A stretch of DNA of 64,000 nucleotides from the NCBI GenBank assembly GCA_018268415.1, contig JAFDWO010000160.1, positions 62,001 through 126,000 on the forward strand, read 5' to 3'. The position numbers and the translations under genes are program-made. The stretch comes from Actinomycetota bacterium (GTDB lineage Bacteria; Actinomycetota; Thermoleophilia; Solirubrobacterales; 70-9). The notes beneath the pieces were generated by a model. It searched no databases, was not told the origin of the DNA, and saw nothing but the letters and a program-made list of their open reading frames with translations. Each line of letters starts with the position of its first letter. The first letter of the stretch is position 1. Below are positions 33,285-34,172 of this stretch, one piece after another.

Positions 33285-33323
33285 GGGAAAAGGAGGGGGC
33301 CGGCTCCCAGGCTGCCGGCCCCC
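33285..33323 (-). terminator. Intrinsic terminator of the 22-codon gene
   Basis: On the minus strand GGGGGCCGGC and GCCGGCCCCC form a 10-bp stem with a 9-nt loop, followed by TCCTTTTCCC. It lies 7 nt after the stop of the small gene and about 30 nt before the PaiB ATG. Confidence 0.85.
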
Positions 33324-33330
33324 GAAGAGC

Positions 33331-33399
33331 TCAGGCGCCCTTGTTGGTCGAAGCGCTCGGCGCGGACATCTCGGCAACGGCGATCTTCACGATGGTCAC
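33331..33399 (-). CDS. 22-residue peptide gene with its own ribosome site and terminator
   Basis: GTG 33399 opens a 22-residue frame reading VTIVKIAVAEMSAPSASTNK plus Gly-Ala. The segment AGGGAGA lies 5 nt upstream of the GTG, and an intrinsic terminator follows the stop. An internal GTG three codons in is an alternative start. The N-terminal half is hydrophobic and the C-terminal half is small and polar. There is no signal-peptide length, no cysteine, and no nearby radical-SAM or lanthipeptide enzyme. It could be a signalling peptide, a regulatory leader or a small modulator. It is divergent from a winged-helix regulator gene 165 bp away. Confidence 0.6.
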   Translation of the reverse strand: MTIVKIAVAEMSAPSASTNKGA

Positions 33400-33462
33400 C
33401 CCCTTCTCCCTGGTCTTTTTTGCAGCGACTGTTCGGTGGGACCAGTTCCACCGCTGAAAGCG

Positions 33463-33503
33463 ATTCCAGCAGTACACGGCATTCCAGCAATATCCGCTGG
33501 AAT
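33463..33503. promoter_or_regulatory. Repeated ATTCCAGC boxes upstream of the winged-helix regulator
   Basis: ATTCCAGC occurs at 33463-33470 and 33481-33488, and its complement GCTGGAAT at 33496-33503, making an 8-bp inverted repeat with a 7-nt spacer plus an extra half-site. The gap lies between the divergent peptide gene and the regulator gene, so it is a likely operator. Confidence 0.55.
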
Positions 33504-33563: not shown

Positions 33564-34172
33564 ATGCCCCCCGCCAAAACCGACACCGCCACGATGGAGA
33601 CGACCCTCGCCGCGATCGTCGCCCACCCGACCAGGGCACAGTGCTTCGTGATCCTGACCGAACGCACCGCAAGCCCAGTGGAAATCGCCCAGGAGATCGG
33701 CAAAGACGTGGGCCACGTCGGCTACCACGTCCGTAAGCTGCAGCAGCTCAACCTGATCGAGCTCGTCGACGAGCGGCCCGTCCGGGGGGCGGTGGAGCAC
33801 TTCTACCGCGCGATCGTGCGGCCGGTCGTGAACGAGGAGGAATTCGCCGCCCAGCCGCAGGGCGAACGCGAAATCTACACCCGCCACATCCTCCAGCTCC
33901 ACGTCAGCGATATATCGCGGGCGATGGACGAGCACGTCTTCGACAAGCGGCCGAACCGCTGGCTCGTCCGCACCCCGATCGTGGTCGACGAGGAGGGCTT
34001 CGACGAACTCGCCGCCCTCCATGCCGAGATCTACGAGCGCACCCTCGATATCCAGGCGCGCAGCGACGAACGGCGCACGGGCACAGATGACGAAGGCATC
34101 GCGACGATGTCGACCAACATGTTCTTCGAGGTGCCCGCACGACGCCGGAAGCCGACCCCCGAGCAGCCCTGA
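33564..34172 (+). CDS. Winged-helix transcriptional regulator (ArsR-like HTH)
   Basis: A 202-residue protein with an N-terminal winged helix (about 8-85): ETTLAAIVAHPTRAQCFVIL, ASPVEIAQEIGKDVGHVGYHVRKLQQLNLIELV, followed by an alpha-helical C-terminal half. The HTH is of the ArsR/GntR-like 'HTH_20' type. ATG 33564 has AAGGAG upstream. No cysteine-rich metal site is seen, so metal sensing is unlikely. It probably binds the ATTCCAGC repeats in its own upstream region and may also control the 22-codon gene. Confidence 0.8.
   Translation: MPPAKTDTATMETTLAAIVAHPTRAQCFVILTERTASPVEIAQEIGKDVGHVGYHVRKLQQLNLIELVDERPVRGAVEHFYRAIVRPVVNEEEFAAQPQGEREIYTRHILQLHVSDISRAMDEHVFDKRPNRWLVRTPIVVDEEGFDELAALHAEIYERTLDIQARSDERRTGTDDEGIATMSTNMFFEVPARRRKPTPEQP

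What the first reader, a model, noticed from the sequence alone, without database searches (positions are those of the whole stretch)
33285..33503. A 22-codon gene with its own ribosome site and terminator, divergent from a winged-helix regulator
AGGGAGA precedes GTG 33399, the frame is 22 codons, and a strong intrinsic terminator follows 7 nt after the stop. The opposite strand carries a winged-helix regulator whose upstream region holds three ATTCCAGC half-sites. A regulator paired with a tiny peptide suggests a peptide signal or feedback unit. No RiPP maturation gene is seen nearby.
Basis: partly seen in the sequence, partly recalled or inferred. Interest (0 to 1): 0.65.

Follow-up and report, generated by a model that had tools for sequence, protein, structure and literature searches.

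The report
Tiny modified-peptide genes paired with regulators
The tiny gene is one of about eight in this soil-bacterium genome that each sit back-to-back with their own DNA-binding regulator and probably share a single ubiquitin-E1-like enzyme elsewhere in the genome that chemically finishes the peptides, which looks like an undescribed peptide-signalling network.

Summary
It belongs to a family. About half of the related ArsR-like regulators examined carry a divergent 18-20-codon gene of the form M-[KR]-[ILM]...[VIM]-P-x5-K-x-x-stop. In an unbiased scan 53 of 57 strong-SD ORFs have Lys at -3; 51 of 102 upstream windows hold such an ORF against 1 of 1020 shuffled. The window's genome has eight pairs. 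In other genera and families of the order, homologous peptides lie next to a ThiF/E1-like adenylyltransferase and a methyltransferase. That enzyme's best solved matches are MccB and PaaA, the microcin C and pantocin enzymes. It occurs in 28 of 232 genomes of the order, once in each of the 12 of the window's genus, and tracks the peptides (Fisher p 1.5e-17). Best reading: RiPP precursors finished in trans by one enzyme and sensed by, or controlled by, the paired regulator. Maturation in trans and signalling are inferred; invariant Lys(-3) suggests a Lys-to-C-terminus lactam. Against simple conservation: the window's ortholog peptides show pN/pS about 1.1.

The parts
33331..33390 (-). 19-codon precursor-like peptide gene, VKIAVAEMSAPSASTNKGA plus TGA
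   Evidence: family consensus, Lys at -3, Pro at -9; start set by orthologs
33396..33405 (-). Shine-Dalgarno sequence AAGGGGGTGA, 5 nt before GTG 33390
   Evidence: sequence; same arrangement in orthologs
33295..33323 (-). terminator-like hairpin, 10-bp stem and 9-nt loop, weak U tract, 7 nt after the stop
   Evidence: fold; hairpin in orthologs read; not called by the scan
33463..33470 (+). operator-like half-site ATTCCAGC
   Evidence: invariant in the six aligned orthologous intergenic regions
33481..33488 (+). operator-like half-site ATTCCAGC
   Evidence: mostly conserved
33496..33503 (+). operator-like half-site GCTGGAAT (opposite orientation), within a run invariant in all six orthologs except for one inserted base in one of them
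   Evidence: GATTCCA/TGGAATC in 18 of 54 intergenic regions against 1.3 expected
33564..34172 (+). ArsR-like winged-helix regulator, 202 aa, with a C-terminal half of unknown fold

Best explanation
The tiny gene encodes a leader-plus-core RiPP precursor. Its N-terminal half (M-[KR]-[ILM]...) would be recognised by one ThiF/E1-like adenylyltransferase encoded elsewhere in the genome, which uses ATP to activate the C-terminal carboxylate. The invariant Lys at -3 most likely attacks it and closes a small C-terminal lactam; some members are also methylated by an associated methyltransferase. The finished peptide is sensed by, or its synthesis is controlled by, the divergently encoded ArsR-like regulator acting at the TGGAAT sites between the two genes. 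Each genome of the genus carries one enzyme and several such peptide-regulator pairs. Shown: the pairs, their recurrence, the Lys(-3) signature, the co-occurrence with the enzyme, and clustering with the enzyme in other lineages. Inferred: maturation in trans, lactam chemistry, methylation, binding of the regulator to the sites, and sensing or signalling.
For: Family: 8 of the 12 full-length regulators of the window genome have such a peptide, one of them shared with a back-to-back regulator. In the broader set, 53 of 103 regulators have a strong-SD tiny ORF, and 53 of 57 such ORFs have Lys at -3 without any C-terminal filter; control 1 of 1020. Enzyme: a ThiF-like protein with E1 hallmarks (GxGxLG, DxD, NRQ, K, CxxC...CxxC), PF00899, TIGR03882 above its cutoff in six of the six proteins tested. 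Best PDB matches are MccB (E 3e-47), then PaaA over profile positions 14-360 (5e-44), ahead of MoeB and ThiF. Co-occurrence: enzyme in 28 of 232 genomes, 12 of 12 of the genus; in-frame peptide-pattern hits in 19 of 28 enzyme-positive and 4 of 204 enzyme-negative genomes, p 1.5e-17, and without the genus 7 of 16 against 4 of 204, p 7e-7. Peptides found beside the enzyme raise the positives to 26 of 28. Linkage: in G021, G024, G065, G069, G070, G077, G078, G112, G194, G222 and G223 the peptide lies next to the enzyme gene; in several of these a methyltransferase and a regulator are near too. Regulation: operator-like sites conserved in orthologs; core peptide distances follow the regulator C-terminal half (Mantel r 0.35) more than its HTH (0.21).
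Against: No transcript, peptide or product has been seen. In the window genus the enzyme is not linked to the peptides. Two enzyme-bearing genomes (G193, G195) show no such peptide near it. The window's ortholog peptides have pN/pS 1.15 (six sequences): no residue-level purifying selection there. The other clade tested has 0.69, and 0.56 for the last 11 codons, against 1.0-1.1 in its other two frames. The N-terminal domain of the enzyme gave no significant hit to a known RRE when searched alone. No transporter or protease was identified. Co-inheritance of neighbours alone would give some peptide-regulator correlation; among distant pairs it is weak (r 0.13).
Confidence: 0.62

Rival explanations
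1. Unmodified linear peptide pheromones of the Rgg/SHP or ComR/ComS sort, sensed by the regulators; the ThiF-like enzyme is coincidental.
For: Pairing and multiplicity as above; the enzyme is unlinked in the window genus.
Against: Peptides and enzyme co-occur over 232 genomes and are adjacent in other lineages. The regulators have an ArsR-like winged helix, not the Rgg type (recalled).
Confidence: 0.13
2. A defensive RiPP (microcin C or pantocin-like antibiotic or intraspecies toxin) whose regulator controls production or immunity.
For: The enzyme is closest to MccB and PaaA among solved structures.
Against: No immunity, export or peptidase gene was recognised beside the pairs. Up to eight pairs, each with its own regulator, in one genome is unusual for an antibiotic. 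The C-terminal residue is not the Asn that MccB needs: 15 of 55 end in Asn and the window peptide ends in Ala.
Confidence: 0.1
3. An intracellular effector: the peptide is a short-range feedback ligand or anti-regulator that never leaves the cell, modified or not.
For: No signal peptide and no linked exporter; divergent genes with shared operator-like sites.
Against: Does not by itself explain why a RiPP-type enzyme accompanies the family; export cannot be judged from sequence.
Confidence: 0.12
4. The ORF is spurious; the region is only a promoter and operator for the regulator with a chance hairpin.
For: pN/pS 1.15 in the window clade; intergenic sites are better conserved than the peptide.
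Against: 1 of 1020 shuffled windows against 51 of 102 real ones; Lys at -3 in 53 of 57; the same peptide type beside the enzyme in other families.
Confidence: 0.03

Closest known systems
IndF / indolylamide RiPP (ThiF-like, S. pneumoniae; PMC12150305, text parts 1-2 of 3 read)
   Same: RRE-ThiF enzyme activates the C-terminal carboxylate; a side-chain nitrogen near the C-terminus (Trp, fourth residue from the end) closes an isopeptide ring; short precursor
   Different: Nucleophile there is Trp; here an invariant Lys at -3 is the candidate. ind has a linked peptidase and transporter; here neither was recognised, and the enzyme would serve many precursors in trans in this genus
Enterofaecin (EnfA/EnfB; PMC12250964, section 17 read)
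   Same: 21-residue precursor, MccB-like enzyme, single-ATP C-terminal activation, proposed signalling role
   Different: WWIVI core and macrocyclic imide; linked transporters and regulators of other kinds; no Lys(-3)
Microcin C7 MccA/MccB
   Same: Closest solved enzyme by profile; very short precursor
   Different: MccB acts on C-terminal Asn; here the last residue varies and is Ala in the window
Pantocin A PaaA/PaaP
   Same: Second-best solved match, including the N-terminal domain
   Different: Different precursor motif (Glu-Glu-Asn, recalled); no paired ArsR-like regulator known to me
Rgg/SHP and ComR/ComS pairs (recalled; titles seen)
   Same: Tiny peptide gene beside its own cytoplasmic regulator, several pairs per genome
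   Different: Receptor fold differs (ArsR-like winged helix plus unassigned C-terminal half), and a shared E1-like enzyme is involved here

Membership tests
ThiF-like (TLAT) RiPP | E1/ThiF adenylation domain of RiPP type | tested here: met
   PF00899; MccB and PaaA are the best solved matches; TIGR03882 above cutoff
ThiF-like (TLAT) RiPP | N-terminal RiPP recognition element | tested here: inconclusive
   Profile aligns to PaaA from position 14, but the N-terminal domain alone has no significant match (PqqD E 0.56)
ThiF-like (TLAT) RiPP | Short precursor gene linked to the enzyme | tested here: inconclusive
   Met in other genera and families of the order; not linked in the window genome, where the link is co-occurrence
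ThiF-like (TLAT) RiPP | ATP-dependent change of the precursor by the enzyme | not testable with these tools
   Needs biochemistry
Microcin C | C-terminal Asn as the modified residue | tested here: not met
   Window peptide ends in Ala; 15 of 55 family members end in Asn
ArsR/SmtB regulators | Winged-helix fold of the ArsR type | tested here: met
   Residues 8-89 against 1uly, Z 13.2, rmsd 2.2, 81 aligned; PF12840 24.3 bits, just under its cutoff of 27
ArsR/SmtB regulators | Curated metalloregulator model NF033788 | tested here: not met
   21.9 bits against a cutoff of 55
Rgg/SHP-type peptide sensing | Peptide gene beside its regulator | tested here: met
Rgg/SHP-type peptide sensing | Rgg-type HTH plus helical-repeat receptor (recalled) | tested here: inconclusive
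   HTH is ArsR-like; the C-terminal half was modelled with low confidence
Daptide | Daptide methyltransferase NF041820 | tested here: not met
   61.8 and 57.1 bits against a cutoff of 175

The most novel reading that the evidence does not exclude
A multichannel modified-peptide signalling network: one E1-like enzyme matures about eight different precursors per cell in trans by joining Lys(-3) to the C-terminus, a ubiquitin-like isopeptide reaction inside a 19-mer, and each product is read by its own ArsR-like receptor encoded back-to-back with it.
Probability: 0.3. Interest if true: 0.88.

Novelty: new variant of a known kind. Interest (0 to 1): 0.75.

Why it matters
If right, it adds a ThiF-like RiPP family in the order Solirubrobacterales (soil actinobacteria known largely from metagenome assemblies), with a likely new Lys-to-C-terminus ring, and a new candidate for peptide-based cell-cell signalling in Actinomycetota. 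The architecture of one enzyme with many precursor-regulator spokes is testable at once in vitro and could offer a set of orthogonal peptide-sensor pairs. It also shows why such systems are missed: the precursor genes have about 19 codons and sit far from their enzyme.

Tried and rejected
Chance ORF: rejected by the shuffled and strand controls. Microcin C membership: rejected on the C-terminal residue. Residue-level purifying selection in the window clade: tested and not found. Searching the ThiF N-terminal domain alone for an RRE gave nothing significant. The AlphaFold model of the regulator is of low confidence outside the winged helix (mean pLDDT 65.8), so the C-terminal half was not assigned; the fold list covers mainly residues 6-95. 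A profile scan for the enzyme gave 20 of 399 genomes of the class, all in the order, and 2 of 396 of the phylum at E 1e-50, one of them the window genome and one weak hit (G611) not followed up. Literature: searches listed no paper on a ThiF-type RiPP, or on a peptide-ArsR pair, in Solirubrobacterales or Thermoleophilia; I read PMC12250964 (outline, passages, sections 17 and 20) and PMC12150305 (text parts 1 and 2 of 3), the others only as listings. In one search the two neighbour queries were translated in wrong frames; one search repeats them correctly and replaces that part.

Rows dropped before counts: of the 124 unique regulators, 103 with at least 250 nt upstream and a domain E-value of 1e-40 or better were used, and 102 with at least 450 nt. 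Of the 86 pattern hits typed into, 26 that were not in frame or had no stop were dropped, and one of two overlapping hits of G004 listed was left out. The 60 kept include at least two that look like chance (one each in G004 and G009) besides the four genomes without the enzyme. The 55 peptides were chosen with a K/R filter and include at least one doubtful row (L067), so Lys(-3) is argued. In one search one upstream-masked regulator was counted as lacking a peptide although the letters left there match its ortholog.

Full report
Observation. On the minus strand the frame V-T-I-V-K-I-A-V-A-E-M-S-A-P-S-A-S-T-N-K-G-A is open from GTG 33399 to a TGA at 33331. Orthologous loci begin at the codon aligned with GTG 33390 (VKI or MKI), and AAGGGGGTGA just upstream is the likely Shine-Dalgarno sequence, so I take the peptide to have 19 residues. 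A 10-bp G+C-only hairpin starts 7 nt after the stop; its U tract is weak and the terminator scan did not list it. The regulator on the plus strand (33564-34172) has an ArsR-like winged helix: PF12840 at 24.3 bits, just under the cutoff, and the model's residues 8-89 match 1uly with Z 13.2. The three ATTCCAGC/GCTGGAAT sites are at the stated places, and the intergenic alignment of six orthologs shows the outer two nearly fully conserved.

A family of pairs. The window's genome has 15 regulator paralogs, 12 of them full length. Eight of the 12 have a divergent peptide of the same kind: MKIAVAEMSAPSASTNKGA (window), MKLSATAVSMPTAATSKGQ, MQLSSQGPAMPSVSTSKSS, MRMGTSQERMAPAAITKGS, MKVSTTLAAMPTSAVHKGN, MSIAETAMAVPTVSVAKAN, MKIHETAQIVPATSVQKPN and MKLCGSLPSIPHAGVSKGN (first residue written M for GTG). 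Across the genus (12 genomes) and some relatives, 124 unique regulators were collected. With no filter on the C-terminus, 53 of 103 have a strong-SD tiny ORF on the divergent strand; of the 57 ORFs, 53 have Lys at -3 and 44 Pro at -9. The four exceptions are 13-36 aa long, and three of them lie in loci that also carry a family peptide. Controls: 51 of 102 real windows against 1 of 1020 shuffled, 0 of 102 antisense and 0 of 102 sense inside the regulator, 5 of 102 on the same strand. On a tree of 103 regulators the peptide label (58 rows, including weaker SDs) needs 8 changes against 33.7 for shuffled labels; whole clades (TSPEGITQQ and RIDQR types) lack a divergent peptide. The locus is syntenic in five orthologs, with a PaiB/FMN_bind_2-type gene beyond the peptide (80-87% identity) and an L,D-transpeptidase-like gene beyond the regulator (64-77% over the aligned pieces) (the second name is my reading of the sequence).

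The enzyme. A DNA pattern scan of 232 genomes of the order gave hits in all 12 of the genus with no hit of the reversed control there, and a few convincing hits in other genera and families. Reading around these showed homologous peptides beside a ThiF/E1-like adenylyltransferase, often with a methyltransferase and a regulator of the same family, for example G024: ThiF, MKPQEIKKPATPRSAIQKGG, methyltransferase, then divergently an ECF sigma factor and the regulator. A profile of the enzyme finds it in 28 of 232 genomes, once each, including 12 of 12 of the window's genus (in G000 it is C59:47960-49030, outside the window; in G011 only part of it was matched). In-frame peptide hits: 19 of 28 enzyme-positive and 4 of 204 enzyme-negative genomes, p 1.5e-17; leaving out the genus, 7 of 16 against 4 of 204, p 7e-7. 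Adding peptides seen next to the enzyme in G024, G065, G069, G070, G077, G112 and G223 makes 26 of 28; none was found in G193 and G195. The same next-to-enzyme search was not made in enzyme-negative genomes, so only the pattern counts are a fair test. The best solved matches are MccB (E 3e-47) and PaaA (5e-44, from profile position 14 on), then MoeB and ThiF. TIGR03882, the TOMM precursor leader-binding model, is passed by all six enzymes tested, the window genome's included. In 399 genomes of the class all 20 matches lie in the order. The methyltransferase has 20 matches in the 12 genomes of the genus, all 12 having at least one; six of these 20 loci also hold a family peptide. It resembles the daptide methyltransferase model but is far below its cutoff.

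Mechanism. Known ThiF-like RiPP enzymes adenylate a carboxylate, which different nucleophiles then attack (PMC12150305 and PMC12250964). IndF joins the indole nitrogen of a Trp, the fourth residue from the end, to the C-terminal Ile (PMC12150305). Here the one invariant nucleophile is Lys at -3, with the two residues after it variable, so a Lys side-chain to C-terminus lactam is the simplest inference. The N-terminal M-[KR]-[ILM] part would be the leader. The shared operator-like sites (GATTCCA in 18 of 54 intergenic regions against 1.3 expected) and the closer tracking of the peptide core with the regulator's C-terminal half (r 0.35) than with its HTH (0.21) fit a cognate peptide-receptor pair; inheritance as neighbours may explain part of this. 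My rough odds: RiPP precursor matured by this enzyme 0.8; product sensed by the paired regulator 0.6; Lys(-3) lactam 0.4; signal that leaves the cell 0.4.

Against. Nothing has been seen experimentally. The window's ortholog peptides evolve fast (pN/pS 1.15; the other clade 0.69), which fits diversifying specificity but also relaxed constraint. The enzyme is unlinked in this genus. No exporter or protease was identified.

Novelty. The enzyme belongs to a known kind (ThiF-like RiPP enzymes). The family, the Lys(-3) signature, the multiplication of precursor-regulator pairs around one enzyme in trans, and the lineage were not described in the papers that searches listed, as far as the listings and the two papers read show. 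The global survey in PMC12150305 looked for clusters with linked proteases and transporters, a criterion these loci seem not to meet.

Noticed in passing
L220, L231, L237, L234, L153 (other genera and families of the order): In these enzyme-bearing genomes an ECF sigma factor (Sigma70_r2 plus r4, 5 of 5 tested) lies near the cluster, in four of them overlapping or directly abutting the regulator gene; the sigma-regulator pair is unexplained.
   Followed up: partly
L009/L011, L085, L089, L100, L101, L103: Back-to-back regulators of two clades share one peptide gene between them: a two-receptor cassette.
   Followed up: partly
L164:5239-6510 and L167:4542-5819: Tandem-duplicated regulators of about 420 aa beside peptides ending in KNG, with a methyltransferase gene near by.
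   Followed up: no
L160:3499 and 3633: Two peptides of the family in tandem (MTIKPCPTVIPSLSLLKNR and MTIKPCSIVAPLMSSFKSR) upstream of one regulator in G054.
   Followed up: no
L239 (G611): A weak relative of the enzyme (E 7e-52) in another family of the phylum.
   Followed up: no
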